A stretch of 64,000 bases of DNA from positions 17,008 through 81,007 of IMG/VR virus record IMGVR_UViG_3300020125_000051. One strand, 5' to 3'. Source of the DNA: a virus. The position numbers and the translations under genes were made by a program. Under the pieces are notes generated by a model. That model searched no databases and was not told where the DNA came from. It worked only from the letters and a program-made list of their open reading frames with translations. Below, one piece after another: positions 46,323 to 59,015 of this stretch (position 1 is its first letter; the number at the start of each line of letters is the position of its first letter).

Positions 46323-46345
46323 TTATTACATCGGCTAGGGCACCG

Positions 46346-46416: not shown

Positions 46417-46424
46417 ATATTTAG

Positions 46425-46993: not shown

Positions 46994-46994
46994 G

Positions 46995-47067
46995 AGCCGA
47001 CAGGAGGAATCGAACCCCCGACATTCTCATTACAAGTGAGACACTCTTCCAACTGAGTTATGCCGGC
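46995..47067 (-). tRNA. tRNA-Thr (TGT)
   Basis: Acceptor GCCGGCA/TGTCGGC, anticodon arm TCTCA-CTTGTAA-TGAGA, T loop TTCGATT. A GTG begins two bases past the discriminator base and opens an 83-aa ORF. Confidence 0.92.
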
Positions 47068-47078
47068 ATATTAAGTTA

Positions 47079-47624: not shown

Positions 47625-47625
47625 G

Positions 47626-47699
47626 TACCAGCGATGGGACTCGAACCCATAACCACCAATTTATAAGATTGGCTGCTCTAACCATTAGCATACGCTGGC
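47626..47699 (-). tRNA. tRNA-Ile (TAT)
   Basis: Acceptor GCCAGCG/CGCTGGT, anticodon arm CCAAT-CTTATAA-ATTGG, T loop TTCGAGT. An ATG follows two bases after the 3' base. Confidence 0.9.
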
Positions 47700-47721
47700 T
47701 CAGCCCTTGCGGGCCTTTGTG

Positions 47722-47796
47722 TTATTTAGTTGGTTTCGGTGGTGGTGGCGGCGGTGGTTTCGGTGGACGTGGCAATGGGTTGTCAATCGGTGTCAT
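47722..47796 (-). CDS. Pro-rich micro-peptide
   Basis: 24 codons, MTPIDNPLPRPP then poly-Pro to KPTK. It follows a second proline-rich peptide with the same PKPTK ending. It has TAGGAATT upstream. Both lie between tRNA-Ile and tRNA-Gln. Confidence 0.4.
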   Translation of the reverse strand: MTPIDNPLPRPPKPPPPPPPKPTK

Positions 47797-47801
47797 AATT
47801 C

Positions 47802-47894
47802 CTACTTAGTTGGTTTCGGTGAATTTGGTGCCGGTCTTGGATCTATTGGTTTAACTGGATCTCTCGGTGGATATGGTGGATTTGGATTTGTCAT
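47802..47894 (-). CDS. Pro-rich micro-peptide starting at a tRNA 3' end
   Basis: 30 codons (MTNPNPPYPPRDPVKPIDPR...KPTK). ATG is two bases after the tRNA-Gln(TTG) discriminator. Ribosome-targeting proline-rich antimicrobials look somewhat similar, but I have no direct support for such a role. Confidence 0.45.
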   Translation of the reverse strand: MTNPNPPYPPRDPVKPIDPRPAPNSPKPTK

Positions 47895-47895
47895 G

Positions 47896-47966
47896 CTGAA
47901 CCACTAGGATTCGAACCTAGATTCATGGAACCAAAATCCATTGGCCTGCCGTTAGCCGATGGTTCA
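47896..47966 (-). tRNA. tRNA-Gln (TTG)
   Basis: Acceptor TGAACCA/TGGTTCA, D arm GGCT/GGCC with AACGGCA, anticodon arm ATGGA-TTTTGGT-TCCAT, T arm CTAGG-TTCGAAT-CCTAG. Confidence 0.9.
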
Positions 47967-47977
47967 ATGCTATTGCG

Positions 47978-48050
47978 TGATCCATCTCGGGCTCGAACCG
48001 AGGACATGCGGATTAAAAGTCCGCCACTCTACCAACTGAGTTAATGGATC
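47978..48050 (-). tRNA. tRNA-Lys (TTT)
   Basis: Acceptor GATCCAT/ATGGATC, anticodon arm GCGGA-CTTTTAA-TCCGC, T loop TTCGAGC. All stems are well paired; an orthodox tRNA. Confidence 0.93.
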
Positions 48051-48058
48051 TCTCATTT

Positions 48059-48244
48059 TCATTTGTATTTCTTAGGAAGATAGGAAGTCATATTTACTTC
48101 CGATGCTATACGTACCCATTTATTATGGATAGCACGTAATTCACTTTCAGTAGCACGCGGTTCGTTGATATGTGCATCTAGAAAAAACTGCCAAATTTCA
48201 GGATAGTTTTTCCCAATGCACGCACCAGATTGCATGTTTGGCAT
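48059..48244 (-). CDS. Small protein with WhiB-like N-terminal motif
   Basis: 61 aa. SGACIGKNYPEIWQFF recalls the first-cysteine segment of WhiB ((A)CxGxDxxxFF), but the other three iron-sulfur Cys are absent. It may be a decayed or repurposed WhiB-like regulator, or the likeness is coincidental. Confidence 0.45.
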   Translation of the reverse strand: MPNMQSGACIGKNYPEIWQFFLDAHINEPRATESELRAIHNKWVRIASEVNMTSYLPKKYK

Positions 48245-48570
48245 TATGAACCTACTTTACTTCCATCATCTTGCCAATAAAATTCACCATTAACACCCAC
48301 TGGTCGATGAACACCACAGTGTACACAATAAGTGGCGCCATAGAAACCAGGATTACGCGCGTAAGTTTCCGCAATCGGTTGACTCATTCTTGTTTCAGTA
48401 CCACAGTACTCGTGGATATAAGTACGTCGTACTGGACGAACGAATCCTTTAGCTCTTTCTTCCTCAGAAAGAACCAAATAAATTTCTGCTTGTGGAATAG
48501 CTGGACCATCTAATGATTCAGCACCATGTGTGAGGCGCGGGTCATTAGGGTCTGAAGTTACATTACCCAT
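48244..48570 (-). CDS. Conserved actinophage 'YLVLSEEERAKGFVRP' protein
   Basis: 108 aa from the ATG at 48570 (TGATG overlap). IYLVLSEEERAKGFVRPVRR, IAETYARNPGFYGATYCVHCG and GEFYWQDDGSKVG form a highly characteristic small-protein family seen in actinophages. A conserved CxxC suggests zinc. Function unknown. Confidence 0.75.
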   Translation of the reverse strand: MGNVTSDPNDPRLTHGAESLDGPAIPQAEIYLVLSEEERAKGFVRPVRRTYIHEYCGTETRMSQPIAETYARNPGFYGATYCVHCGVHRPVGVNGEFYWQDDGSKVGS

Positions 48571-48905
48571 CAGAATGCATCCCAAAGTGCAGAGTGACGA
48601 TGAGGGAAATTCTGGAAATCATAATCTTCTAATTCCTCAATAGGCATTTTTAGCATTTCACTTGCTGCTAAACGCCACCGAGTGCGATCTTTACCATTTG
48701 CTTTAGCGCGATATACTTGCTCACTCTTTGGACGACCATAGATACCACTAGTGTAGTAATGTTCTCTGGTGAAGTTAAATTCACACCAGTACTGTACACC
48801 ATCAAAATCACAAACACCCTTACGGTGATCGTGGTCTTCCACTCTCATCTGTGGGTTTTGCCGAAGCCTAACTTCCCACGGAGTAGTCTTATCGGTTTTA
48901 GACAT
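48570..48905 (-). CDS. Conserved actinophage protein ('DHDHRKGVCDF')
   Basis: 111 aa from the ATG at 48905. PWEVRLRQNPQMRVEDHDHRKGVCDF resembles a widespread actinophage family starting TPW-x-VR. It is coupled to the protein above and overlaps the next ORF by about 60 nt. Confidence 0.62.
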   Translation of the reverse strand: MSKTDKTTPWEVRLRQNPQMRVEDHDHRKGVCDFDGVQYWCEFNFTREHYYTSGIYGRPKSEQVYRAKANGKDRTRWRLAASEMLKMPIEELEDYDFQNFPHRHSALWDAF

Positions 48906-49294
48906 GTTAGTTTGCACCAATCTGCAAACTGGACCATCCAGTTTACTATAACATGTCTTCTCCTCTCCTCATAAGCATCACCTGATACATGATACTCACA
49001 ATCATCTTTCCAACAAAGATTGTCGGATCCATATAGTTTAGAGCTAGCTTCACAACTATTTGCTATTGGTACTGAATAAACTTCTGGCTCAAACTTAAGC
49101 ATAACACGACTGGTCCGATTTGACAAGCCGTATATAACGTTACCAAGCCACTCAAATCGGGATAATTGGGACATAACGCCACAGCACGGACAAAAGCGAT
49201 GCCAAATAAACTCATATATTGGCATCCACCACGGTACTCTAACAATCGCTAGTTTGTCACCATCTTTATGTGACAAGACATGAACTTGTAACAT
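48845..49294 (-). CDS. Hypothetical protein
   Basis: 149 aa, aromatic, with CPCCG, several isolated Cys and a hydrophobic N-terminal third. The basic C-terminus (RLLRGKLGFGKTHR) overlaps the next gene by 61 nt, more than its neighbours do. Possibly metal-binding. Confidence 0.5.
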   Translation of the reverse strand: MLQVHVLSHKDGDKLAIVRVPWWMPIYEFIWHRFCPCCGVMSQLSRFEWLGNVIYGLSNRTSRVMLKFEPEVYSVPIANSCEASSKLYGSDNLCWKDDCEYHVSGDAYEERRRHVIVNWMVQFADWCKLTCLKPIRLLRGKLGFGKTHR

Positions 49295-49320
49295 ATGTCC
49301 TCCTCGGACCTAGATACTGT

Positions 49321-49563
49321 TCATGTCTGTTTCCTTTCTGCTTGATTCGGAGTTAACTTCATACACCATAAACAAAAATCATGTTCTGGACGACCACATT
49401 GATCTGCTTCTGGACTATGACCGAAGAAGAAACAAATAGTACTTTGAATTCGATCATAGATCCAACCCAAAGAGTCGACTGTTCTAGTAGATTTTTCAAA
49501 TTGATCATATCTATGTTCAAACCAGAACATGATTTTTTGTTGAAATCTTTCTTTCTTATTCAC
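49321..49563 (-). CDS. Small protein starting at a tRNA 3' end
   Basis: 80 aa, GTG start two bases after tRNA-Asn's discriminator. MNKKERFQQKIMFWFEHRYD then STICFFFGHSP and HDFCLWCMK suggest a Cys-containing, partly aromatic soluble protein. Unrecognised. Confidence 0.58.
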   Translation of the reverse strand: MNKKERFQQKIMFWFEHRYDQFEKSTRTVDSLGWIYDRIQSTICFFFGHSPEADQCGRPEHDFCLWCMKLTPNQAERKQT

Positions 49564-49564
49564 G

Positions 49565-49635
49565 CTCCACCACCAGGATTCGAACCTAGATCAACCGATT
49601 AACAGTCGGTCGCACTGCCCTTGTGCTATGGTGGA
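49565..49635 (-). tRNA. tRNA-Asn (GTT)
   Basis: Acceptor TCCACCA/TGGTGGA, anticodon arm CCGA-CTGTTAA-TCGG, T arm CTAGG-TTCGAAT-CCTGG. A second Asn-anticodon arm appears inside the Y-like RNA at 60727-60840. Confidence 0.9.
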
Positions 49636-49642
49636 ATGATCT

Positions 49643-49978
49643 TTATATTTTGAAGAAACTTTTTATCTTTACGATAATGTCATATAATATTTCTTGGTTT
49701 TGAACTTGAAATTTAATTAGTTTTATTACGCGCCACCAAATTACAAAAGCAATGGCGCCAATTACTATTGTCCAACCTTTAATAGCATCCATTCGTTCGA
49801 GGTGTGGAGCTACAAGTGAATAAATGAATGCTACCGCAAGCGCTAACATGAAGAAGAGTACATGCTTACCCATAGAATCACGCCATGGTTTTAACAGCGC
49901 GTACAATATGCAAAACGTTACGAATCCAGCAACAACAATCCAAACCAGAATCATCAACACAATCTCAGGGAGAGCCAT
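49643..49978 (-). CDS. Three-span membrane protein
   Basis: 111 aa with hydrophobic segments at about 5-27, 39-58 and 66-84, then a basic amphipathic tail. KPWRDSMGKHVLFFMLALAVAF resembles a common actinophage membrane family near lysis cassettes. It overlaps the start of the next gene. Confidence 0.6.
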   Translation of the reverse strand: MALPEIVLMILVWIVVAGFVTFCILYALLKPWRDSMGKHVLFFMLALAVAFIYSLVAPHLERMDAIKGWTIVIGAIAFVIWWRVIKLIKFQVQNQEILYDIIVKIKSFFKI

Positions 49979-50210
49979 GGTTATTCCTTCTAAGCATGCT
50001 GTCGTTCATGGCTGCTGTAAAACTATCTACGCGGTACTTCACACGTCGAGCGCTCGCTACAGCTTTTGCTAGTTCTGGTAATTGTTGCTTTGTCTCAGCC
50101 AATTTTGTTTGGGCATTTTGCAATTTCTCATCTACTGAATCCTCATCAGTAAATGATGCTGCGGATCTCTCGGCTATCTTACGTTTTGTTAACCAATTCC
50201 ATAGCTTCAT
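49965..50210 (-). CDS. Coiled-coil small protein
   Basis: 81 aa. VDEKLQNAQTKLAETKQQLPELAKAVASARRV is a long helix; NDSMLRRN follows. Similar proteins accompany the membrane proteins on either side in actinophages, possibly as lysis or spanin-like partners. Confidence 0.55.
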   Translation of the reverse strand: MKLWNWLTKRKIAERSAASFTDEDSVDEKLQNAQTKLAETKQQLPELAKAVASARRVKYRVDSFTAAMNDSMLRRNNHGSP

Positions 50211-50521
50211 TATAAAACCTTCTCAACCGTTTGTGGCGGTAAGGCAGCTATCATTCCTTGCGCCCGGGAGACCTCTAGAATCTGTTCTATTTTTGAAGCT
50301 AGTAAATCATTTCGTTCATCTTGCAGTTTGTTAATTGTTTCAAGCTTATCGATGTATTTGTCTTTGTCTTGCAAAGACCTTTCATATAAAGCAACTATCT
50401 TATCTACTGCTGATTTTGTATATATTGCACCACTTCGAAGACCCAGGAATAAAAGAGCCAGAAATGCACCAGCCATGCCAAATTGAAGCCATGGCACAAT
50501 GTCGATGCCATTCGGTCCCAT
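50210..50521 (-). CDS. Membrane-anchored coiled-coil protein
   Basis: 103 aa. One N-terminal membrane helix (FGMAGAFLALLFLGLRSG) is followed by a continuous coiled coil (YERSLQDKDKYIDKLETINKLQD). This architecture resembles actinophage lysis accessory or holin-like partners. Coupled at both ends. Confidence 0.58.
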   Translation of the reverse strand: MGPNGIDIVPWLQFGMAGAFLALLFLGLRSGAIYTKSAVDKIVALYERSLQDKDKYIDKLETINKLQDERNDLLASKIEQILEVSRAQGMIAALPPQTVEKVL

Positions 50522-50591
50522 TTTTGCCTCATCTTGAATTGGTGCTCAACCGACCCCTCAGAGATTACGTCATAAAGGGCCGGCGAGACAA

Positions 50592-50849
50592 CTAATCAGC
50601 ACCATTTAATACCTCATAGCACTTCTGACAATCAAAATACACATCGTTGTCAGGATTTTGTGCATCTTCTAATGTGATGGCACGATCGCCCATGACCGCA
50701 TCACCACAGAAGCTGTTCATTGTTTCTAAGTTAATAACATGTGTAGTTGGTTCATTAATTTCTGTCATGTTATTCCTTAATTGAGGTTCTAATTGTCCAG
50801 GAGTTTCCCATGGTAATGCATATCTCCATGCTGGGTTCCTAGTAATCAC
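50592..50849 (-). CDS. Small protein starting at a tRNA 3' end
   Basis: 85 aa from a GTG exactly two bases beyond the tRNA discriminator; an internal ATG at 50768 would give 58 aa (MTEINEPTTHVINLETMNSF...). Two Cys at the end (FDCQKCYE) may bind zinc. The leaderless start is inferred from the recurring spacing. Confidence 0.52.
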   Translation of the reverse strand: MITRNPAWRYALPWETPGQLEPQLRNNMTEINEPTTHVINLETMNSFCGDAVMGDRAITLEDAQNPDNDVYFDCQKCYEVLNGAD

Positions 50850-50850
50850 G

Positions 50851-50921
50851 GTTCCACAGTAGGATTCGAACCTACACTATCACCGTTACCGGGCTGCCTC
50901 TACCAATTGGGCTATATGGAA
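50851..50921 (-). tRNA. tRNA with degenerate anticodon arm
   Basis: Acceptor TTCCATA/TGTGGAA and T arm GTAGG-TTCGAAT-CCTAC are good. The anticodon stem has only about three pairs around CGGTAAC, whose position would read GTA (Tyr). A separate orthodox tRNA-Tyr exists at 51645, so identity is unsettled; it may be decaying or a mimic. Confidence 0.55.
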
Positions 50922-50929
50922 CTTTATAG

Positions 50930-51055
50930 GATATGGTTACTGTTCGTTTCGAGTTGCTTTCAGTGTATACCCTAGCTGACCCTGACGAACCTGACCCATT
51001 TACTCATCTACCATCGTGGGATTTAAATCGTCGACTCCCACTCCCTCACCATATC
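50930..51055 (-). ncRNA. Structured inter-tRNA RNA candidate
   Basis: An 8-bp outer stem GATATGGT/ACCATATC encloses 110 nt with an internal hairpin GTGGGA/TCCCAC. No convincing ORF. It follows tRNA-Asp by 6 nt, so it would be released by tRNA processing. Family unknown. Confidence 0.4.
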
Positions 51056-51060
51056 TTACG

Positions 51061-51133
51061 CGATACCGACGGGATTCGAACCCGCATAATCCACCGTGAC
51101 AGGGTGGTGCACTGACCATTATGCTACGGTACC
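51061..51133 (-). tRNA. tRNA-Asp (GTC)
   Basis: Acceptor GGTACCG/CGGTATC, anticodon arm CCACC-CTGTCAC-GGTGG, T loop TTCGAAT. Two bases after its 3' base is GTA, a near-miss of the punctuation rule. Confidence 0.92.
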
Positions 51134-51141
51134 TTATTTAG

Positions 51142-51438
51142 TTATTTGCGAATATCTATCTTATGAGAACGCAATCTGGCAACTACTGAGTTTCTAGTCC
51201 AAACTATGCCAGTTGAATTAAAATCATCTATTATTTCATTAATGACTGCGTTACGCACATTAGCTTCAATACGTGTATGATAAGCAGCTAGTACAGGTTC
51301 CATGGCTTCGATCATTTGTCCACCGACACCTGCAAAGAAATCCGCCATAGCAGATGCTTCTTCGGGAGTAAGTGTGCCATTCATGTATACACTTGCTAGG
51401 AACTTATTACGAATTGCATCGTGCGATACAACAGTCAT
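51142..51438 (-). CDS. Hypothetical protein
   Basis: 98 aa, mostly helical (RNKFLASVYMNGTLTPEEASAMADFFAGVG), basic C-terminus. It has its own Shine-Dalgarno-like GGAAGAAC. Unrecognised. Confidence 0.55.
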   Translation of the reverse strand: MTVVSHDAIRNKFLASVYMNGTLTPEEASAMADFFAGVGGQMIEAMEPVLAAYHTRIEANVRNAVINEIIDDFNSTGIVWTRNSVVARLRSHKIDIRK

Positions 51439-51477
51439 CTTAGTTCTTCCTGTGGTGTTTATTATTGATGGTACATG

Positions 51478-51550
51478 TGGAGAATATCGGATTCGAACCG
51501 ATCACCTCTGCCTTGCAAAAGCAGCGCTCTACCAAATGAGCTAATCCCCC
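51478..51550 (-). tRNA. tRNA-Ala (TGC)
   Basis: Acceptor GGGGGAT/ATTCTCC with G·T pairs, anticodon arm CTGCT-TTTGCAA-GGCAG, T loop TTCGAAT. An ATG two bases later opens only a four-codon frame (MYHQ). Confidence 0.9.
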
Positions 51551-51552
51551 AA

Positions 51553-51634
51553 TGACATATTGGGTGTGGTCCCATACCAGAATTCTAAACCCCTATCCAC
51601 AAAAGGGGTACTCTTGGCAGCGGTGCATATGTCA
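51553..51634 (-). ncRNA. Structured RNA candidate with cloverleaf-like arms
   Basis: Outer stem TGACATAT/ATATGTCA (8 bp), hairpin ACCCC/GGGGT and hairpin TGGT-ATGGG-ACCA. The size (82 nt) and layout are tRNA-like, but it lacks TTCGA and a 7-nt anticodon loop. It sits between tRNA-Ala and tRNA-Tyr. Confidence 0.42.
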
Positions 51635-51644
51635 GACACCTCAG

Positions 51645-51725
51645 TGGGCATGGTTGGTATCGAACCAACTTTGCGTTATACGCATCGGTTTTACAGACCG
51701 ATCCCTGGACCTCCAGGACACACCC
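51645..51725 (-). tRNA. tRNA-Tyr (GTA), long variable arm
   Basis: Acceptor GGGTGTG/CATGCCC, anticodon arm TCGGT-CTGTAAA-ACCGA, variable arm TGCG-TATAA-CGCA, T loop TTCGATA. A normal bacterial class II tRNA. Confidence 0.93.
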
Positions 51726-51736
51726 ATATTCAATTA

Positions 51737-52006
51737 TTATTCTCTTGATTTATTATTTGGATGTTCTGGACATTTATATTGATGTTCGAATCCGCGACAA
51801 CCTAAGCAATCATTGAACCAAGCTTCAATGTATCCATACCATCCACCTTTAGATCTAGATATGGTAGCATCTATCCTTTTAGCATTAGTGAATTCATCTG
51901 ATCTGATAACAACAGATACAATCGAAGACATTTGTAAGAATGTTTCGGTTGGTTCATCGCTGTACCATTCGCCCCATGTTCCATCTTTTATTATTCTTGT
52001 AGCCAT
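51737..52006 (-). CDS. Hypothetical protein with Cys
   Basis: 89 aa from the ATG at 52006. GTWGEWYSDEPTETFLQ is followed by a beta section (VVIRSDEFTNAKRIDATISRSKGGW) and NDCLGCRGFEHQYKCPEH, three Cys plus His that suggest zinc. Overlaps the gene upstream. Confidence 0.57.
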   Translation of the reverse strand: MATRIIKDGTWGEWYSDEPTETFLQMSSIVSVVIRSDEFTNAKRIDATISRSKGGWYGYIEAWFNDCLGCRGFEHQYKCPEHPNNKSRE

Positions 52007-52149
52007 GTCGGGATATGCCTCAGTTCCCATCTAGCATTGGCTGATGCTCTCTTACAATCATCACATCTACAACCATATCTATACTTAGTTGTAGTTCCAT
52101 GTGCAGGATCTCCATATTCTTTTTGTTCTAGCTTAGTTCTCATTGGCAT
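51991..52149 (-). CDS. 'GCRCxxC' motif micro-protein
   Basis: 52 aa from the ATG at 52149; in-frame extension would run into tRNA-Pro. EYGDPAHGTTTKYRYGCRCDDCKRAS has the array's recurring motif. The tail is basic/hydrophobic. Probably zinc-binding. Confidence 0.55.
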   Translation of the reverse strand: MPMRTKLEQKEYGDPAHGTTTKYRYGCRCDDCKRASANARWELRHIPTWLQE

Positions 52150-52189
52150 TGTAATAATCTCCAATGCTATACATATATACAATTTTTGG

Positions 52190-52264
52190 TCGGGATAGTA
52201 GGATTTGAACCTACGGCCCCTGCGTCCCAAACGCAGTGCTCGTACCAAACTGAGCTATATCCCG
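52190..52264 (-). tRNA. tRNA-Pro (TGG)
   Basis: Acceptor CGGGATA/TATCCCG, anticodon arm CTGCG-TTTGGGA-CGCAG, T loop TTCAAAT. Unusually for this array, CCA is encoded after the discriminator. Confidence 0.92.
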
Positions 52265-52273
52265 TTGACTGGT

Positions 52274-52353
52274 GCAATGTTAGATAACGGAGGCGTAGGC
52301 ACATTAGGTGACTAGACTAATGCACGGCGTTTCTATTTGCATCTAAACATTGC
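52274..52353 (-). ncRNA. Structured RNA candidate
   Basis: The - strand can form GCAATGTTTAGAT/ATCTAACATTGC with one bulge, an apical hairpin CATTAG/CTAATG and no ORF. It starts 10 nt upstream of tRNA-Pro, matching how the Y-like RNAs sit 2-6 nt before tRNAs. Confidence 0.42.
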
Positions 52354-52358
52354 GGTGA

Positions 52359-52437
52359 TTGTAGTTGGTAATGGCTTCTGCTGTCGAGCATTATTAACAG
52401 TACCTACTACAACACTTTTACCAGTTGTTGGCTACAA
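52359..52437 (-). ncRNA. Structured RNA candidate (two-stem)
   Basis: Outer TTGTAG/CTACAA and inner TGGTAA/TTACCA stems are separated by an 8-nt bulge on one side. The shape is like the Y-type architecture but without its sequence. It lies between the element above and tRNA-Glu(TTC). Confidence 0.35.
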
Positions 52438-52462
52438 ACCCATGCATTGATTTATAGCTACG

Positions 52463-52534
52463 TAGTCTCGGAGGGAGTCGAGCCCTCTTCACAGCGGTGA
52501 AAGCGCTGTATCCTAACCCATAGACGACGAGACC
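52463..52534 (-). tRNA. tRNA-Glu (TTC)
   Basis: Acceptor GGTCTCG/CGAGACT, anticodon arm CAGCG-CTTTCAC-CGCTG, T arm GAGGG-CTCGACT-CCCTC. Confidence 0.9.
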
Positions 52535-52547
52535 TTATTTAATTGGT

Positions 52548-52686
52548 GATAGGTTGGTAGTTTCCTTAACACTACCGGTGCCACATTTTGAGCACATATC
52601 CGCAACTCAATATGTAGTCCACCACTGCCCTTTGTGTACTGTATTTATGCGGCCCATACAGCCTTACTGGATAGGCTACCCCTATC
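52548..52686 (-). ncRNA. Structured spacer candidate
   Basis: GATAGG/CCTATC ends, an inner hairpin GGTAGT/ACTACC, and ACATAT/ATATGT plus TTGAG/CTCAA in the middle. No ORF. It bridges tRNA-Ile(GAT) and tRNA-Glu(TTC); its ends lie 2 and 13 nt from them. Confidence 0.33.
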
Positions 52687-52687
52687 G

Positions 52688-52761
52688 TTGGACACCACAG
52701 GATCGAACTGTGCACCTCTACGTTATCGGCGTAGCGCTCTAACCAAATGAGCTAGTGTCCA
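52688..52761 (-). tRNA. tRNA-Ile (GAT)
   Basis: Acceptor TGGACAC/GTGTCCA, anticodon arm CTACG-CCGATAA-CGTAG, T loop TTCGATC. Position 33 is C rather than T. Confidence 0.88.
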
Positions 52762-52864
52762 ATAACCCTCACCCTAGACAACTGGCATTGCTAGAGACTC
52801 TTGGGCTACGCACCTGCCAGGGCACTTGCATCGCAACGAGATTAACGAGTCCCGCCCAATACCG

Positions 52865-52935
52865 TACAGACAGAGAGGATCGAACTCTCGCTAGTAGATT
52901 GAGAATCTACCGGTCTGCCATTAACCTATGCCTGC
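52865..52935 (-). tRNA. tRNA-Glu (CTC)
   Basis: Acceptor GCAGGCA/TGTCTGT, anticodon arm GTAGA-TTCTCAA-TCTAC, T arm GAGAG-TTCGATC-CTCTC. Its U8-A9-G10 supplies the stop of the gene at 52926-53102. Confidence 0.9.
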
Positions 52936-53102
52936 TCACTACCAACTAACTTAATTGATAATACTTCATTTTCTTGGGCCATGAAAATACAAACTCCACC
53001 AGCGATGAACCTAAACCAACCACCTAATTGCTTATATTCATCAGCAATTACTATAGTAGGGATAGATGGTGTCTTAACATATCTTACATCATATTTATTC
53101 AT
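52926..53102 (-). CDS. ORF framed by two tRNAs
   Basis: 58 aa (MNKYDVRYVKTPSIPTIVIA...). Its ATG is two bases after the tRNA-Leu(TAA) discriminator and its stop TAG is tRNA-Glu(CTC) positions 8-10. So the CDS exactly fills the space between two tRNAs and must be released by processing. WFRFIAGGVCIFMAQE gives a hydrophobic core. Function unknown. Confidence 0.62.
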   Translation of the reverse strand: MNKYDVRYVKTPSIPTIVIADEYKQLGGWFRFIAGGVCIFMAQENEVLSIKLVGSEQA

Positions 53103-53103
53103 G

Positions 53104-53176
53104 TGCTTCCGGTGAGATTCGAACTCACACTTAAAGGATTTTAAGTCCTTCGCCTCTGCCATTGGGCTACGAAAGC
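53104..53176 (-). tRNA. tRNA-Leu (TAA), short variable loop
   Basis: Acceptor GCTTTCG/CGGAAGC, D arm GCCC/AGGC with AATGGCAG, anticodon arm AAGGA-CTTAAAA-TCCTT, variable region TAAGT only. Bacterial tRNA-Leu normally has a long variable arm. Confidence 0.85.
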
Positions 53177-53230
53177 TAGGTGACTATCCTTTACGGCGAT
53201 AGTCGTTCCGCTTCCTGTCGGGAAGTTATA

Positions 53231-54820
53231 TTAGATTCTACCTGCGCTAAACGCAGAAACCAATTTAGGCAAGTTTGAATCTGCGCCCGCTACGTCTAGC
53301 ATACCACTATCTGTGGGATTTGCAATAGAAAATCGCGTTGGAGTACATGCAACAACAATCAACTTTGCGTCATGACCTATAAACCTGCGATAATCCTTCA
53401 ATGCAACATGAGGATGTACATTACCAGCCCATGTTTCACTATCAGTCATTACCACAAAGGTATCAACGTCGATGCCACGTTCCTTGGCATATACCATTGG
53501 CAGTGAACAATCTGTACTACCAAAATTGCGATCCTTAGTTCTTTGCATTACTTCAGCTAGTGACATATTAGGTGCTATTCCCAAATCAACAAAATTCTGG
53601 GAGAATCCCATGATTTGGTAGAATGGCTCAGTTCTGGCAATCGTCATTGACATAGCTGCGCAAACTTCGGCAGCAGTTAAGTCAATGCCAGCCATCGACT
53701 GAGACATAGAACCAGAAACATCAAGAGCTATCATGGTACGCTTGTTAGCTGGTTCTACGTACTTAAAGGCACGATAGAAACCATCATCAAGTGCATTTAC
53801 GATAACAGGATTAGTTGCCCAATTCTTTTCATAGGTGTGACTCCATGCGTACTTACGATCACGCTGACCACGCTGATGCACAGTAGATGCTAGCAAATAC
53901 TGGAAAGGATGCAAGCGCGTACGCTGAATCATTTCCTCATCTACAAGCTTATCTGCATATGCACGAGCAAAGTGCATGTCCTCGAAAGCACCAATACGAG
54001 CAAGTCTAGTGATATTACGTACTAGAGCCTGACCGTTAAGCTGTCCATTACCGAAAAGCATCTTCCATACATCAGGAACCTTTAGGAATTGAGTAGGAAT
54101 GGCTTCCCAGGGAAGATTTGGATAACGCTCTAGTGCTGAAAGCACATGTCCTATCATGGTAGATGCTTGCATCCGCTTGAATCCAGCAATTATCAGCGGA
54201 TCTACATTAACTTCATTATCAAAGCCATGCACGAAATCGCCAATTGCCTTATTCAATCCCACAGGATGTGAAAGCATGAGCAAACCCTTGTGGGTCCAGC
54301 CGTTCCGTTGACGGTACTTTACCACCTGATACGCAAGGCTGTCAACATCCTTGCTAATGTACCAATCGGCAATCGCGCGCCGCTTTGCTCGTCCCCAACC
54401 ACCTAGAAGTTTGATATATTCAGCAAACTCGAATAGATGAGTTGACGTGCGACACACCTTAGCTAAGTCCTGCGAAGATTTTGCCTTGCCAAAGGTAAAC
54501 AGCGCGGCCAAACAAAAAATTGCAGGACTATTGCGGAAAGCACGGCCAGACTGTGAGATTTCAACTACAGTATCACGAACTAACTGCTCATCACGCTCAA
54601 TTAGTTCGCGTAGAAAGTTGATGTTATCCTTAGTAAGCTTCTGCTCGTCAACATAGTATGTTCCACCTTCGGTACCCAAAATAAGAAAACGCTCTAGGCG
54701 AGTCTTATCTGTTACCTCAAACGTAAAACCACCAGCATTGTTAGCAACCTGCCGAGGATCTTCTTGCTCTGACTGTGGTATTGGTGTTCCTAGTGTTCTT
54801 GAAAATACGTTGTTTGCCAT
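53231..54820 (-). CDS. rsr: Ro60/TROVE-domain RNA-binding protein (Rsr)
   Basis: 529 aa. Residues about 25-340 form the helical-repeat TROVE ring: FLILGTEGGTYYVDEQKLTKDN, IFCLAALFTFGKA, and LLMLSHPVGLNKAIGDFVHGFDNE. The vWA domain follows with the MIDAS motif ALDVSGSMSQS at about residue 365, with VVMTDSETW near the end. Ro holds misfolded RNA ends and Y RNAs; in bacteria it tethers PNPase. Two tRNA-like genes, a Y-like RNA and seven more such RNAs lie upstream. Its own leader (54828-54850) has Y-like sequence. Tandem hairpins follow the stop. Confidence 0.93.
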   Translation of the reverse strand: MANNVFSRTLGTPIPQSEQEDPRQVANNAGGFTFEVTDKTRLERFLILGTEGGTYYVDEQKLTKDNINFLRELIERDEQLVRDTVVEISQSGRAFRNSPAIFCLAALFTFGKAKSSQDLAKVCRTSTHLFEFAEYIKLLGGWGRAKRRAIADWYISKDVDSLAYQVVKYRQRNGWTHKGLLMLSHPVGLNKAIGDFVHGFDNEVNVDPLIIAGFKRMQASTMIGHVLSALERYPNLPWEAIPTQFLKVPDVWKMLFGNGQLNGQALVRNITRLARIGAFEDMHFARAYADKLVDEEMIQRTRLHPFQYLLASTVHQRGQRDRKYAWSHTYEKNWATNPVIVNALDDGFYRAFKYVEPANKRTMIALDVSGSMSQSMAGIDLTAAEVCAAMSMTIARTEPFYQIMGFSQNFVDLGIAPNMSLAEVMQRTKDRNFGSTDCSLPMVYAKERGIDVDTFVVMTDSETWAGNVHPHVALKDYRRFIGHDAKLIVVACTPTRFSIANPTDSGMLDVAGADSNLPKLVSAFSAGRI

Positions 54821-54827
54821 TTTTGAA

Positions 54828-54850
54828 CGACCCCTTTCAAGGGATATATT
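54828..54850 (-). promoter_or_regulatory. Y-RNA-like element in the Ro 5' leader
   Basis: The leader contains AATATATCCC-TTGA-AAGGGGTCG. It joins the two strands of the conserved Y internal loop (TATATCC and GGGTCG) across a CCC/GGG hairpin that also holds the AAAGGGG ribosome-binding site. Ro could bind it to repress its own translation. This is inference; no second copy exists elsewhere in the leader. Confidence 0.4.
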
Positions 54851-54863
54851 GTGTTACATTACG

Positions 54864-54932
54864 TGGCATGGGTAGGATTCGAACCTACTTCCCTAGGACT
54901 GCGTAGCTTTTCCAATTAAGCCAATCCATGCC
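54864..54932 (-). tRNA. tRNA-like element, anticodon arm not formed
   Basis: Acceptor GGCATGG/CCATGCC and T arm GTAGG-TTCGAAT-CCTAC are perfect; total length is only 69 nt. The segment CGCAGTCCTAGGGAA does not form a 5-bp anticodon stem. It lies directly upstream of the Ro gene. Confidence 0.6.
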
Positions 54933-54935
54933 AAG

Positions 54936-55024
54936 TGGGGACACATGGAGTCGAACCATGTCAACTCAGACTGATCAATCTGAGGGCTAGTTTTGATCAG
55001 TATATACTAGCGTCCAAAGTCCCC
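54936..55024 (-). tRNA. Unusual tRNA-like RNA next to Ro
   Basis: Acceptor GGGGAC/GTCCCC (6 bp) and T arm CATGG-TTCGACT-CCATG are sound. The D arm is expanded (GCTAG with a 16-nt loop) and the anticodon arm has an 8-nt loop. The D loop ACTGATCAA is perfectly complementary to TTGATCAGT in the anticodon loop. This suggests a switch or pseudoknot rather than a normal adaptor. Confidence 0.55.
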
Positions 55025-55030
55025 TTGAAT

Positions 55031-55161
55031 GTTGGATATAGTTTGATAATCGGGGTTTTTGATAGCTCTTGGGCTCCGAATCGAACGGAGACCTTATACT
55101 TTTCAAGTATATATGCTACCTTTTACACTACCCTAGATAACCGACTATCGATCGACCCAAC
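55031..55161 (-). ncRNA. Y-like RNA 1 with embedded tRNA-Phe-like domain
   Basis: 131 nt. Outer stem GTTGG/CCAAC, conserved loop GGGTCGA opposite TATATCC, inner stem GATAGTCGG/CCGATTATC, then GGTTATC. A full tRNA-Phe-like cloverleaf lies on top. It starts 9 nt after the stop of the beta-helix gene and ends 6 nt before a tRNA-like 5' end. Confidence 0.85.
55066..55137 (-). tRNA. tRNA-Phe-like (GAA) inside Y-like RNA 1
   Basis: Acceptor TCTAGGG/CCCAAGA with one A·A mismatch, D arm with GTGT/GCAT wobbles, anticodon arm TATAC-TTGAAAA-GTATA, T arm CTCCG-TTCGATT-CGGAG. Its 5' strand overlaps the conserved Y GGTTATC. It may be a mimic, not a decoding tRNA. Confidence 0.65.
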
Positions 55162-55170
55162 AAAAATCTA

Positions 55171-56397
55171 TTAACCTTCTGCCATGATCTGATTATCTAT
55201 GTTTGCACCAGATGAATCTAGCACATTTCCAGAAATTGATAATCCGCCGCAGCCATCAGTGTGCTTAGCTGGAAAACCAGTACCAGGGAAAATAGGTCCA
55301 AATCTGTTGTTTAACAACGAACCGCGGTTCTGAGCACAGTAAACTGTGTACGAACCACCAACAAGTAAGTTGTTAGTAATTGTTAAGTTAGACTGAATTC
55401 CATGCCCAAAGTTTGGATCATTTGGGGGTCCAGAAGTAAATGTAGCATTGTCATCAGTCATTAAAACTGTGTTATGAATATACTGAATGTTGCTTTCGGA
55501 AGCAGAGCGCGCTGGCCAAACCTGAATACCATCAGTATGTGGATCTGGCGCTACACTATCACCCTTGAACATTCCATGTATATAAGAATCACGAATCGTG
55601 AAAACTGAGTTTGCGTCGCCACCGTTTTCGCAATTGCTAATATCGGCGCCAGTTACAAACAAAAATTCATCACCAAAAGCAGTACCACCATGCATACTAG
55701 GACCACAGAAAACAGACACATGATCCATAGTAGTTACGCCGCCACTATCGGCTGCACCAGCGGTTTCTACAACATAACCTGGAACATTGCAATTAACTGC
55801 AACATTCCTAAATGTTACATTTTGAGCTGTAATTACAGGACATCCAACAATAGTAACGTCATGAATTACTGCACCAGCAGTACCAAAGGTTAATGAGCCA
55901 CTATATGCTGGTAGACTTCCATGCGCGCCTGCCGTTGTGGCATCAGGGAAACCACAGGAACCAGGATTAGCCGCGCAATTGTTACCAGAAGGTGGTGGAC
56001 TCGTAGTAGTCGGAGGTGGAGTTGTCGTTGGTGGTGGATTAGTGGTAGTAGGTGGTGGAGTAGTAGTAGGTGGAACAGTCACCGTTGGTGATGGTGACGG
56101 AGAACCTGTTACTGTAGAACTAGGTGTTGGTGTTGGTGTTGCGGTTAGTCCTGCAATAACCTTTTGCTTGATTATAATACATTGTTGTGCTCTTGTCCGC
56201 TCAGCGGATGTAGTTGCAAATTGTAGGTCTAACTGACATTGTCTTAATAATCGTTGTGCATCGGTTAAATCTGAACTAGCATCCGCTGACGCTCGTTCAT
56301 TATTTGTAAAGATAACTAATGCACCAGTAATTAATGCCATAACTGCAAACCAAATTGCAATTTTCTGCCTTGTTGAACTTATGTGCGTTTCGAGCAT
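55171..56397 (-). CDS. Secreted/membrane-anchored beta-helix protein with Pro/Thr linker
   Basis: 408 aa. A signal-anchor helix lies at residues 12-32 (IAIWFAVMALITGALVIFT), then a helical stretch. Next is a Pro/Thr/Ser linker at about 85-145 (TPTPTPSSTV, PPPTTTNPPP), typical of secreted actinobacterial proteins. The C-terminal about 260 residues form a parallel beta-helix with repeating strands and Asn ladders (MDHVSVFCGPSMHG, IRDSYIHG, IHNTVLMTDDN). Pectate-lyase-like folds bind or cut polysaccharide. It could alter the host surface. AGGAGG-like GGAGGTAC precedes the ATG. Confidence 0.75.
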   Translation of the reverse strand: MLETHISSTRQKIAIWFAVMALITGALVIFTNNERASADASSDLTDAQRLLRQCQLDLQFATTSAERTRAQQCIIIKQKVIAGLTATPTPTPSSTVTGSPSPSPTVTVPPTTTPPPTTTNPPPTTTPPPTTTSPPPSGNNCAANPGSCGFPDATTAGAHGSLPAYSGSLTFGTAGAVIHDVTIVGCPVITAQNVTFRNVAVNCNVPGYVVETAGAADSGGVTTMDHVSVFCGPSMHGGTAFGDEFLFVTGADISNCENGGDANSVFTIRDSYIHGMFKGDSVAPDPHTDGIQVWPARSASESNIQYIHNTVLMTDDNATFTSGPPNDPNFGHGIQSNLTITNNLLVGGSYTVYCAQNRGSLLNNRFGPIFPGTGFPAKHTDGCGGLSISGNVLDSSGANIDNQIMAEG

Positions 56398-56465
56398 TGT
56401 ACCTCCACTAGAAGAACTAACCGGAGATCAATGTCCAAATTATCACTTCCATTCATTTTAGCACG

Positions 56466-56548
56466 CGGAAGCTAAAGGAGTCGAACCCTTAGGTATTACC
56501 CTAGCCAGATTTTCAAGACCTGTTGCCCACCACTGAGCGCTAGCTTCC
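56466..56548 (-). tRNA. tRNA-Ser (TGA)
   Basis: Acceptor GGAAGCT/AGCTTCC, anticodon arm CAGGT-CTTGAAA-ATCTG, long variable arm TAGG/CCTA, T loop TTCGACT. A GTG two bases after the 3' base opens a three-codon frame (MLK). Confidence 0.92.
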
Positions 56549-56553
56549 TTGAG

Positions 56554-56625
56554 ATATCGGATATATTTGCGTTAATTGGATGGTCTGCAGAAACAGTTGA
56601 TAACCAATTAGCTTTGACCCGATAT
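56554..56625 (-). ncRNA. Y-like RNA 2 (short form)
   Basis: 72 nt. Outer stem ATATCGG/CCGATAT, loop GGGTCAA opposite ATATATCC, inner stem TAATTGG/CCAATTA and GGTTATC with a small head. It starts 5 nt after the stop of the 64-aa gene and ends 5 nt before tRNA-Ser. Confidence 0.87.
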
Positions 56626-56630
56626 TTAAA

Positions 56631-56825
56631 TTAGAGTAGTTCTCCTGCTAACTTTGTCATTGCTGATTTTGCTTCATGCAGTTTAACACATAGCGGAGAA
56701 TATAGAACTTTACCTGAACAATGTTGGGCAGCGTTTGCTTCTGAGTTTCTTTCCTCACGTACTATTGCCCAAATTAGTGCTTCATGTACCTTGTCAATTT
56801 CACGAATGATATCTGCTCTGTCCAA
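56631..56825 (-). CDS. Small helical protein
   Basis: 64 aa from a TTG start next to the NlpC/P60 stop. DIIREIDKVHEALIWAIVREER is a long helix; Cys at 36 and 45. Unrecognised. Its stop is followed 5 nt later by Y-like RNA 2. Confidence 0.5.
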   Translation of the reverse strand: MDRADIIREIDKVHEALIWAIVREERNSEANAAQHCSGKVLYSPLCVKLHEAKSAMTKLAGELL

Positions 56826-57590
56826 TTATACAAACCTCTTAGCGGCATAGAATGAATACAAGTTGTTAATGATTACACCTTGCTTGTATCCGGCAGCTTC
56901 GACAATCTTACCATTACCAATATAGACAAACACATGACCAATGAACGGCCAAACTATATCTCCAGGTTGTAGATTGTTGCGAGACACCCGAACACCTTGG
57001 TTAGAATAAAGGATCTGTGCATCTTGATGAGGCACATTAATTCCAACCTGAGCTAGTGACATCATCACAAGACCAGAACAATCAAATGCATATGGTCCAG
57101 CAGCAGCCCAAGAATAACGCTTGCCAACCTGAGCTAATGCGTAGTTGACAATTCTTTGCGCTCTTGAAGTGTTAGCTGATGCTACTGTGGTGGTTGCCTT
57201 AATTACTGGCTTAGTTACTGGTGCCGTGGCAGGTACCGAACTAACCACAGGTGCAGTAGGTACAAAAATTTGCTGACCTACACCAAGCTGATTGCAGTTG
57301 GCAAGTTTATTATACTGACAAATACCTGGCCAATACCCAGGATTCGAATAGACAGCGTTGGAAATACCAAAAAGACTTCCATAAGGAGAAGGATACTTTT
57401 GAGTAGTAATCCAAGTGCCAATTGGCTTCGCTACGGCCACCGATTCAACAGCTTTTGCTGTTTCTGTTGCTGCCACTACCTTCTGGTCGACTATTGTCGT
57501 CGCTCCCGCAGGAGTTGCAATGGCAAAAACGCTAATACTTATGAGTAGGCTGCCTAATGAAGCTTTTATGGCAGACTTGGATCTAGACAT
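56826..57590 (-). CDS. Secreted LysM-NlpC/P60 peptidoglycan hydrolase
   Basis: 254 aa. The signal peptide runs to ATPAGA (about residue 30). A LysM-like segment ends LGVGQQIFVP at about 110, followed by a Pro/Val/Thr linker. The NlpC/P60 domain is residues about 145-254 with catalytic Cys in YAFDCSGLVMMSL and His in GHVFVYIGNGKIVEAAG. It cleaves peptide cross-links. In a phage this may aid lysis or modify the wall, beside the GH25 enzyme. Confidence 0.88.
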   Translation of the reverse strand: MSRSKSAIKASLGSLLISISVFAIATPAGATTIVDQKVVAATETAKAVESVAVAKPIGTWITTQKYPSPYGSLFGISNAVYSNPGYWPGICQYNKLANCNQLGVGQQIFVPTAPVVSSVPATAPVTKPVIKATTTVASANTSRAQRIVNYALAQVGKRYSWAAAGPYAFDCSGLVMMSLAQVGINVPHQDAQILYSNQGVRVSRNNLQPGDIVWPFIGHVFVYIGNGKIVEAAGYKQGVIINNLYSFYAAKRFV

Positions 57591-57764
57591 TTATATCCTA
57601 TCTCTTTGCGAAAACAGACAGGATGAGCTAGTTAGAGTTTAAAGTCTGTTTTCGCCCCTGTTTGAATATTAAATTGTATTTTAGATGCATGTTAGCTTTG
57701 TTTCACCACCCTTTTAGAGGCAAGTATACGGATCTCCCGTATCACCATACGCTAACATGCAACG

Positions 57765-57836
57765 TGCCAAGAGCAGGACTCGAACCTGCGCATCATGTTC
57801 TTCAGACATGCGCTCTGCCAACTGAGCTATCGAGGC
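57765..57836 (-). tRNA. tRNA-Phe (GAA)
   Basis: Anticodon arm CATGT-CTGAAGA-ACATG and T arm GCAGG-TTCGAGT-CCTGC are good. The acceptor GCCTCGA/TCTTGGC has two mismatches. This is the more normal of two Phe-anticodon genes. Confidence 0.83.
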
Positions 57837-57839
57837 AAT

Positions 57840-57901
57840 GATAAGGATATATTTTTGTCATCGTTATTTGCTGTGATAACCGATGAACTTTGACCCTTAT
57901 C
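57840..57901 (-). ncRNA. Y-like RNA 3 (shortest)
   Basis: 62 nt. Outer stem GATAAGG/CCTTATC, loop GGGTCAA opposite AATATATCC, inner stem CATCG/CGATG and GGTTATC capped by ACAGCAAATAA. It begins 7 nt after the stop of the gene at 57909 and ends 3 nt before tRNA-Phe. It gives the minimal Ro-binding core. Confidence 0.87.
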
Positions 57902-57908
57902 TCAAAAC

Positions 57909-58313
57909 TTAAATTCCGTCTAGAATGTCTGGTGCGGCTGTTTCTTCTGCTGTTGGTGCTGTCGTCGCTGGTGGCTCTGGCGATGCTGCCTCAACGGCAG
58001 TGTCGAGTGTAGTAAGTTGATTGCTCGCATCAGTTAGTGCAGTCTCGGCATCACTGAGTGCTGAAAGTGCACCAGTAACATCTGGCGAAGCCTGGCTAAG
58101 TAGCCGAGTAACATCCTTAACTAATTCAATCGTGTTTTTGAGCACTGTCTGAGTAGCTGTAGAAACTTCAGCTACCTTAGCAGTTAGTTCGTCGACGCCT
58201 GCCATTACCTGATCCACCTTTGCTGGTAGTTCTGGATCACTTACCACGGTAGTGTGGAAGTGTATGGTAGTAACGGATGATGGGATTCCATCTAGATGGA
58301 AGAAAACATCCAT
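57909..58313 (-). CDS. Coiled-coil/helical repeat protein
   Basis: 134 aa, almost entirely helical (DQVMAGVDELTAKVAEVSTA, LLSQASPDVTGALSALSDAE) with an Ala/Thr/Pro-rich C-terminus. Codon use is richer in G/C-ending codons than its neighbours. Unrecognised. Confidence 0.55.
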   Translation of the reverse strand: MDVFFHLDGIPSSVTTIHFHTTVVSDPELPAKVDQVMAGVDELTAKVAEVSTATQTVLKNTIELVKDVTRLLSQASPDVTGALSALSDAETALTDASNQLTTLDTAVEAASPEPPATTAPTAEETAAPDILDGI

Positions 58314-58336
58314 TTGACCAACTTTCTTTAGTGCAG

Positions 58337-58409
58337 AGCCACAGGTAGGAATTGAACCTACGAAAACAGGTTTTGCAGACCTGCGCCTTTACCATTCGGC
58401 CACAGTGGC
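58337..58409 (-). tRNA. tRNA-Cys (GCA)
   Basis: Acceptor GCCACTG/CTGTGGC with one mismatch, anticodon arm CAGGT-CTGCAAA-ACCTG, T arm GTAGG-TTCAATT-CCTAC. Confidence 0.9.
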
Positions 58410-58413
58410 GTGG

Positions 58414-58487
58414 GGTGTATGACGGGATTTGAACCCGCGAATGACTAGAGTCACATTCTAGCTCCTGATGCCTCCGGATCATACACC
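58414..58487 (-). tRNA. tRNA-His (GTG)
   Basis: Acceptor GTGTATG/CATACAC with an extra 5' G (G-1) opposite C73, as needed by HisRS. Anticodon arm CTAGA-ATGTGAC-TCTAG, T loop TTCAAAT. A CCA is encoded after the discriminator. Confidence 0.9.
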
Positions 58488-58489
58488 AG

Positions 58490-58562
58490 TACCAACGAGG
58501 GGAGTCGAACCCCTAACAACTAGAACCTAAATCTAGCGCCTCTGCCATTGGGCTACGTTGGC
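58490..58562 (-). tRNA. tRNA-Leu (TAG), short variable loop
   Basis: Acceptor GCCAACG/CGTTGGT, D arm GCCC/AGGC with AATGGCAG, anticodon arm CTAGA-TTTAGGT-TCTAG, variable TTGTT only. U8-A9-G10 is the stop codon of the gene at 58553-58852. Confidence 0.85.
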
Positions 58563-58852
58563 AAGTTATTAGGATTCCATTCATGGTATGTTACAGTTGA
58601 AATCCTTTTGATTGTACGAGTTAACACAGTTCTATTGCTAAATTGCAACATACATTCATCACAAATATTAATCATTAACTGGTGAATATTAGACATTGGA
58701 TCCCAGACCGTACTACCATATTGTCCACTTGAGTAAAATGTAGTAGCTTCTTGTGGTTGGAAATTCCATCGGTTAGTATCTCTATCCGAGTCAGGTTTAA
58801 AGACAGGTTCCAATTCTTTATCACATTTGAAACAATTAACTGGTAGCTTCAT
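58553..58852 (-). CDS. Conserved small protein ending on a tRNA
   Basis: 99 aa from the ATG at 58852. PVNCFKCDKELEPVF, TFYSSGQYGSTVWDPM and NICDECMLQF give two CxxC pairs and a YGST motif seen in phage/bacterial small zinc proteins. Its stop is TAG at tRNA-Leu positions 8-10, so it ends 10 nt inside the tRNA. Confidence 0.7.
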   Translation of the reverse strand: MKLPVNCFKCDKELEPVFKPDSDRDTNRWNFQPQEATTFYSSGQYGSTVWDPMSNIHQLMINICDECMLQFSNRTVLTRTIKRISTVTYHEWNPNNLPT

Positions 58853-58917
58853 TTTTGTCTCCAGACATAAAAAGATGGTTCCTTTTGTTATCAAGAGTAG
58901 GAACCAAAAAGCTCTCC

Positions 58918-58970
58918 GTCAACAAGGAATTTTTTCAGCCCGGTTACGTCTGGCTTAAAATTATGTTGAC
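58918..58970 (-). ncRNA. Hairpin downstream of the lipoprotein gene
   Basis: Outer GTCAACA/TGTTGAC (7 bp) and inner AGCC/GGCT with 8- and 12-nt sides. The geometry is close to the minimal Y-like RNA but lacks its sequence. A second hairpin GTTACCT/AGGTAAC lies between it and the lipoprotein stop. Probably 3' UTR structure. Confidence 0.35.
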
Positions 58971-59015
58971 TCAAACGTTTCGACGGTTACCTTTATACCG
59001 AGGTAACAGCGGTTG

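What the first reader, a model, noticed from the sequence alone, without database searches (positions are those of the whole stretch)
55066..55137. A tRNA-Phe-like cloverleaf sitting on a Y-RNA stem
The embedded Phe(GAA) domain is in normal order, with its acceptor continuing into the Y stem (GGTTATC overlaps it), while a separate tRNA-Phe is at 57765. This is a different mode of tRNA fusion from the permuted domains of RNAs 6 and 8, so the head module seems to be exchangeable.
Basis: partly seen in the sequence, partly recalled or inferred. Interest (0 to 1): 0.72.

Follow-up and report, generated by a model that had tools for sequence, protein, structure and literature searches.

The report
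Phage Y RNA with unpermuted tRNA head
A phage that carries its own copy of the Ro60 protein also encodes eight small Ro-partner RNAs ("Y RNAs"), and the one next to the Ro gene carries a whole tRNA-shaped domain in normal order, joined through its acceptor stem, whereas the tRNA-like domains described so far in bacterial Y RNAs are circularly rearranged; this makes the tRNA-mimic part of these particles look like a pluggable module.

Summary
On the minus strand, 55162-55030 is a Y RNA: two helices, UGUUGG/CCAACA and GAUAGUCGG/CCGAUUAUC, with the motifs GGUCGA, UUAUC and AUAUCC. Its head is a cloverleaf in normal D-AC-T order, called tRNA-Phe(GAA) (ARAGORN; Rfam 55.9 bits). The acceptor begins with the UC of UUAUC. 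No shuffled sequence (192 kb) gave such a stem, and none of the other 28 tRNAs has comparable flanks. A Ro60/Rsr gene lies 210 nt downstream, and the window holds seven more Y RNAs. Two Ro relatives, L248 and L266, carry such an RNA at the same place; a covariance model made from those two alone finds this element as its best new match (49 bits). Sixteen of 36 pairs show compensatory changes. Anticodon loops and even the T loop are not conserved. This copy has G73, U1-A72 and an A.A acceptor mismatch, and a separate tRNA-Phe with A73 lies at 57764. Best reading: a Y RNA with an unpermuted tRNA-like head, not primarily a chargeable tRNA-Phe. The solved YrlA head is permuted, so this is a new variant. 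Expression, Ro binding and function are inferred; the minimum-energy fold of this copy favours a different acceptor/D pairing.

The parts
55030..55162 (-). Y RNA A (whole element: Ro-binding-type stem plus unpermuted tRNA-like head)
55157..55162 (-). lower Y helix, 5' strand UGUUGG (pairs with 55030-55035 CCAACA), followed by GUCGA at 55152-55156
55141..55149 (-). upper Y helix, 5' strand GAUAGUCGG (pairs with 55045-55053 CCGAUUAUC)
55136..55142 (-). GGUUAUC motif; its last two bases (UC) are acceptor positions 1-2
55066..55137 (-). tRNA-like head, normal order (acceptor UCUAGGG/CCCAAGA with one A.A mismatch, D arm, AC arm UAUAC-UUGAAAA-GUAUA, T arm CUCCG-UUCGAUU-CGGAG, G73)
55054..55065 (-). 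3' linker between head and upper Y helix (12 nt, CUAUCAAAAACC; no CCA)
55030..55053 (-). 3' strand of Y stem: CCGAUUAUC-AAACUAUAU-CCAACA
53231..54820 (-). Ro60/Rsr protein (TROVE + Ro60 vWA, DxSGS motif), 529 aa; E 1.4e-104 to D. radiodurans Rsr 2NVO
56554..56625 (-). Y RNA H, small 19-nt head
57840..57901 (-). Y RNA G, minimal 11-nt head
60291..60421 (-). Y RNA B, head = capped hairpin, D-like arm, AC-like arm (T arm absent; tentative)
60726..60839 (-). Y RNA C, head = AC arm (CUGUUAA loop), T arm, short cap (D arm absent)
61098..61233 (-). Y RNA D, YrlA-type permuted head T - capped acceptor - D (Rfam YrlA, 24.6 bits, below cut-off)
61567..61636 (-). Y RNA E, minimal 16-nt head
61645..61798 (-). 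Y RNA F, permuted head T - capped acceptor - D plus a further hairpin; counterpart at L248:4576-4737
57764..57836 (-). separate ordinary tRNA-Phe(GAA), A73, two acceptor mismatches

Best explanation
The element is a phage-encoded Y RNA: a Ro60/Rsr-binding stem whose effector module is a tRNA-like cloverleaf in normal order, attached through its acceptor stem. It most likely works as other bacterial Y RNAs are thought to: the phage Rsr, encoded just downstream, binds the stem and is thereby stabilised, gated or tethered, while the tRNA-shaped head faces outward and recruits or mimics something that recognises tRNA (host PNPase as in RYPER, a tRNA-modifying or tRNA-handling enzyme, or a tRNA-targeting nuclease). 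In this phage the stem is constant and the head is swapped among eight Y RNAs, so each RNA could bring Rsr to a different partner. Shown here: the stem, the head, their nesting, compensatory changes, conserved position next to Ro in three phages, and loss of decoding features in the relatives. Inferred: transcription as one RNA, Rsr binding, and the partner of the head.
For: Stem descriptor hits with none in shuffled DNA. Flank score unique among 29 tRNAs. Rsr gene 210 nt downstream. Seven sister Y RNAs. Counterparts 338 and 677 nt before the Ro genes of L248 (Ro 61% identical) and L266 (60%), found with the descriptor and ARAGORN. Model R1, made only from L248+L266, ranks this site first among new sequence in 64 kb and in 1.5 Mb: 49 bits, full length, E 3.7e-10 in the window; best ordinary tRNA there 38.3 bits. 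Three-sequence alignment: 92.6% of cells paired, 16 of 36 pairs changed on both sides, 0/500 shuffles as high, slid versions 2-4. L248 folds by minimum energy into Y stem plus complete cloverleaf, z -2.9. The order of Y RNAs (F, E, C, short, A, Ro) is kept in L248. Anticodon and T loop not conserved; G73; the L266 head has no Rfam tRNA match.
Against: RNAfold of this copy prefers another pairing of the D and acceptor parts (GGUAGC/GCUAUC); cloverleaf -29.4 against MFE -36.7 kcal/mol; acceptor pair probabilities near 0. The anticodon arm of this copy is a perfect tRNA-Phe loop and its Rfam tRNA score is high, which a pure mimic does not need. Only three clear members plus one looser case (L195). 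The alignment was fitted to the model, so the pair counts lean towards it. No expression data.
Confidence: 0.75

Rival explanations
1. It is an ordinary phage tRNA-Phe gene whose leader and trailer happen to pair; RNase P and 3' nucleases release a working tRNA and the Y stem is a by-product.
For: ARAGORN and Rfam call it; AC loop UUGAAAA is a textbook Phe loop; it sits in an array of about 30 tRNA genes; nearly all tRNAs of the array lack an encoded CCA, so its lack says nothing.
Against: Y motifs and both helices; conserved place next to Ro; counterparts with non-decoding loops; G73, U1-A72, A4.A69; another tRNA-Phe with A73 at 57764.
Confidence: 0.1
2. Both: a Ro-bound RNA whose head can also be matured or charged as tRNA-Phe, so that the phage keeps a protected store of tRNA or a chargeable Y RNA.
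For: This copy alone keeps an intact Phe anticodon arm and canonical T loop; the acceptor sits at an asymmetric internal loop (3/13 nt) that RNase P might cut.
Against: Phe identity base 73 missing; not kept in relatives.
Confidence: 0.08
3. The head is a decoy for host anticodon nucleases or other tRNA-cutting defences, held on Rsr.
For: Wolin and co-workers proposed that the YrlA tRNA-like domain might competitively inhibit an anticodon nuclease (PMC7790460); phage tRNAs do evade tRNA-targeting defences (PMC10264068, PMC11555353, abstracts); heads A and C carry intact-looking anticodon arms with Phe and Asn loops.
Against: Anticodon loops are not conserved between counterparts and are closed or damaged in L248 and L266; many permuted heads have no anticodon arm. 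This is a sub-case of the best explanation, with no direct evidence.
Confidence: 0.12
4. In this copy the head is not a cloverleaf but an AC-T two-arm head closed by GGUAGC/GCUAUC, and the tRNA resemblance is vestigial.
For: Minimum-energy fold.
Against: The alternative helix is absent in L248 and L266, whose D arms and acceptors covary with the cloverleaf; nearest-neighbour folding often misses real tRNA cloverleaves.
Confidence: 0.15

Closest known systems
YrlA / bacterial Y RNA (Rfam RF02553; Salmonella YrlA, PDB 6CU1)
   Same: Ro/Rsr-binding basal stem, tRNA-like effector domain, gene next to rsr, several Y RNAs per genome.
   Different: The known tRNA-like domain aligns with tRNA only after a circular permutation (PMC11472068) and resembles the D, T and acceptor arms (PMC8394870); here the order is normal, an anticodon arm is present and the acceptor leads into the Y stem. 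No YrlA match for this element at E up to 5.
Deinococcus radiodurans Y RNA in RYPER (Rsr - Y RNA - PNPase)
   Same: Proposed logic: stem binds Rsr, head tethers a partner.
   Different: Partner unknown here; phage rather than host gene.
tmRNA tRNA-like domain
   Same: An unpermuted tRNA-like part within a longer RNA.
   Different: tmRNA is charged with Ala and encodes a tag; here the ends form a Ro-type stem, and there is no tag sequence or CCA.
Phage-encoded tRNA-Phe genes
   Same: Cloverleaf, GAA anticodon, location within a tRNA array.
   Different: G73, U1-A72, mismatched acceptor, Y stem, non-decoding counterparts in relatives.

Membership tests
Y RNA (Ro-associated, bacterial/phage) | 5' and 3' ends form a stem with conserved motifs (GGUCGA ... 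UUAUC, ... AUAUCC) shared with sister Y RNAs | tested here: met
Y RNA (Ro-associated, bacterial/phage) | encoded near a Ro60/Rsr gene | tested here: met
   Rsr 210 nt downstream; also in L248 and L266
Y RNA (Ro-associated, bacterial/phage) | bound by Ro/Rsr protein | not testable with these tools
   needs pull-down
YrlA (RF02553) | matches the Rfam covariance model at its gathering score | tested here: not met
   no match for this element up to E 5; sister D only 24.6 of 69 bits. The other phage Y RNAs scanned also fail, so the model is narrow
YrlA (RF02553) | circularly permuted tRNA-like head (T - capped acceptor - D) | tested here: not met
   head order D-AC-T with open acceptor
tRNA-Phe | tRNA cloverleaf with GAA anticodon | tested here: met
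tRNA-Phe | Phe identity elements such as A73, G27-C43, G28-C42 | tested here: not met
   G73, U27-A43, A28-U42; identity set from general knowledge of E. coli tRNA-Phe
tRNA-Phe | anticodon conserved in counterparts | tested here: not met
   AUU (C33) in L248, GCG (U37) in L266
tRNA-Phe | released, matured and charged | not testable with these tools
   needs Northern, RNase P assay, aminoacylation

The most novel reading that the evidence does not exclude
The tRNA-like four-arm junction is a universal plug: in one phage the Ro-binding stem replaces or extends each of the four cloverleaf arms in different Y RNAs (AC in D and F, D in C, T in B, acceptor in A), so the same 3D shape is shown to partners in every orientation, and at least one (A) may still be chargeable or act as an anticodon-nuclease decoy.
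Probability: 0.25. Interest if true: 0.85.

Novelty: new variant of a known kind. Interest (0 to 1): 0.6.

Why it matters
How bacterial Y RNAs came to mimic tRNA, and what their heads bind, is open. An unpermuted tRNA grafted on the same Ro stem, next to permuted ones in the same genome, suggests that heads are taken from or evolve through tRNAs and are exchanged as modules, and it gives a natural set of RNAs with one stem and different heads with which to find the partner of each head. It also suggests that some 'tRNA genes' in phage arrays are really parts of Ro RNPs and would be miscounted in codon-usage studies.

Tried and rejected
Rfam scan for YrlA (too narrow). First strict stem script required GUCRA and missed many relatives (GUCGG, GCCGA); replaced by looser ones. 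Broad DNA patterns in viral contigs and genome contigs gave many chance matches; after filtering only L195 and the known L248 contig had normal-order heads, and none of the pattern loci held a new member. L245 (tRNA-Val after GGTCGA..GGTTATC) was rejected: no 3' stem. Blastn of the element against phages found nothing relevant. Four-sequence MAFFT alignment misaligned the arms, so the model was built from L248+L266. The nearest ordinary tRNA to the head in the window is Met or Gln, not Phe, too distant to name an origin. T-opened class: the automatic calls were mostly wrong, so B and L250:2394 rest on inspection. The genome search with R1 on the own record found nothing although the site is there, so its empty answer says nothing. 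No S1-domain or RtcB gene was found in the own record; the T4-type RNA ligase search was uninformative because its controls were silent too. Chen 2014, Wang 2018 and Sim and Wolin 2018 were not held, so they could not be checked for an earlier mention of unpermuted heads.

Full report
Setting. The window is bases 17008-81007 of an 81-kb virus record. Its nearest named relatives by the Ro gene are Streptomyces phages of the Stanwilliamsviridae. It carries an array of about 30 tRNA genes, all on the minus strand, and a 529-aa Ro60/Rsr protein at 53231-54820(-) with TROVE and Ro60-vWA domains, matching D. radiodurans Rsr 2NVO at 1.4e-104.

Observation. ARAGORN and Rfam both call tRNA-Phe(GAA) at 55065/55066-55137(-), 55.9 bits. 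Read 5' to 3' on the minus strand, the sequence is UGUUGG GUCGAUC GAUAGUCGG UUA [UCUAGGG UA GUGU AAAAGGUA GCAU A UAUAC UUGAAAA GUAUA AGGU CUCCG UUCGAUU CGGAG CCCAAGA] GCUAUCAAAAACC CCGAUUAUC AAACUAUAU CCAACA, 55162-55030. UGUUGG/CCAACA and GAUAGUCGG/CCGAUUAUC are the lower and upper Y helices; the UC of the UUAUC motif is also acceptor positions 1-2. A script that demands both helices and the motifs finds eight such elements in the window and none in 192 kb of shuffled sequence. A control that ignores motifs and scores only nested pairing of the flanks gives 18.1 for this tRNA and at most 12.9 for the 28 others.

The set of Y RNAs. F 61798-61645, E 61636-61567, D 61233-61098, C 60839-60726, B 60421-60291, G 57901-57840, H 56625-56554, A 55162-55030. 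D and F have the YrlA order T - capped acceptor - D; C has AC - T - cap; B folds as capped hairpin - D-like - AC-like; E, G and H have heads of 11-19 nt. In about 100 mostly Ro-bearing loci a looser script found 187 Y RNA candidates, 120 with heads of 45 nt or more (some redundancy). 44 were classed as T-Acc-D, 20 as AC-T-Acc (about half of these fit T-Acc-D as well), and two by strict rules as normal order: this element and L248. Shuffled heads gave none in normal order in 20 rounds. L266 is a third, by eye, ARAGORN and pairing.

Counterparts. The Ro relatives L248 (61% identical) and L266 (60%) carry Y RNAs with normal-order heads 338 and 677 nt before their Ro genes. A fourth, looser case, L195, lies 143 nt after a distant Ro gene. 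The order F, E, C, short, A, Ro is shared between the window and L248. A covariance model of L248 and L266 only finds the window element as its top new match: 49 bits, full length, E 3.7e-10 in the window, 8.7e-9 in 1.5 Mb; ordinary tRNAs reach at most 38.3 bits there, and 39.2 bits in a later set of unrelated contigs. On the three sequences 92.6% of pair cells are standard, 16 of 36 pairs have compensatory changes, no shuffle of 500 reaches this, and sliding the partner drops it to 2-4 pairs. All six helices take part, although the acceptor is the weakest (85.7%). The alignment was fitted to the model, so these counts lean towards it.

Is it a tRNA-Phe? The head of this copy has G73, U1-A72, A4.A69, U27-A43 and A28-U42, against the A73, G27-C43 and G28-C42 used by PheRS in E. 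coli (general knowledge). The head of L248 has loop UCAUUGA (C33) that folds shut as a 7-bp hairpin. L266 has CUGCGUG (U37) and T loop UUGGAGU, and gets no Rfam tRNA match. A separate tRNA-Phe with A73 lies at 57764, itself with two acceptor mismatches. So the conserved thing is the shape and its place, not the decoding. The intact Phe anticodon loop of this one copy stays unexplained by a pure mimic.

Caveat on the fold. RNAfold gives the Y helices and the AC and T arms high probability but prefers GGUAGC/GCUAUC to the D arm and acceptor of this copy (-36.7 against -29.4 kcal/mol). Taken alone, the 73-mer folds as a cloverleaf, and the L248 RNA folds as Y stem plus full cloverleaf. Probing is needed.

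Known background. Bacterial Y RNAs have a basal stem that binds Rsr and a tRNA-like domain resembling the D, T and acceptor arms; in D. radiodurans the RNA tethers Rsr to PNPase (PMC8394870; PMC8058203). The solved YrlA domain superposes on tRNA with a circular permutation (PMC11472068). Wolin and co-workers raised the idea that the YrlA head competes for an anticodon nuclease (PMC7790460). I found no report of an unpermuted tRNA head, but the primary papers were not held, so prior mention is not excluded.

Verdict. A real, conserved Y RNA with a tRNA-like head in normal order attached at the acceptor: a new variant of a known kind. The reading that all four arms are used as grafting points in one phage is attractive, but it rests on inspection for the T-opened case and is kept as the novel case.

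Noticed in passing
window 54936-55028 (-); L248 9671-9762: Between Y RNA A and Ro lies a tRNA-like RNA missed by ARAGORN, with an enlarged D arm (loop with CUGAUCA) and an AC-like arm with a 10-nt loop (UGAUCAG); the two loops are perfectly complementary over 7 nt in both phages, which suggests a kissing-loop. A pattern search of viral contigs found only the L248 contig besides the window.
   Followed up: partly
window 54866-54930 (-): tRNA-like RNA with shrunken anticodon arm just before the Ro gene (Rfam tRNA 23.7 bits, below cut-off).
   Followed up: no
window 57764-57836 (-): The ordinary tRNA-Phe has two adjacent acceptor mismatches (U4.U69, C5.U68), unlike almost all other tRNAs of the array.
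   Followed up: no
window 58414-58487 (-): Likely tRNA-His (GUG loop) missed by ARAGORN and matched only weakly, as tRNA-Sec.
   Followed up: no
L258 7951-8094, L277 7953-8096, L010 18068-17926 (-), L251 4682-4826: Another head type: T arm first, then a GGAU/AUCC-type helix that encloses a D-like and an AC-like arm.
   Followed up: no
window 44353-62504 (-): Only tRNA-Pro of the array appears to encode CCA; the others called by ARAGORN have C at position 74 but no CCA, and several abut the start codon of the next ORF.
   Followed up: no
window, e.g. 61020-61093 (+): Rfam RF04354 'Plastid-ycf2' matches the antisense strand of ordinary tRNAs below its cut-off, so the family looks like antisense tRNA.
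   Followed up: no
window 55171-56397 (-): 408-aa ORF with Pro/Thr-rich linker and no Pfam match, upstream of Y RNA A; next to an NlpC/P60 protein at 56826-57590.
   Followed up: no
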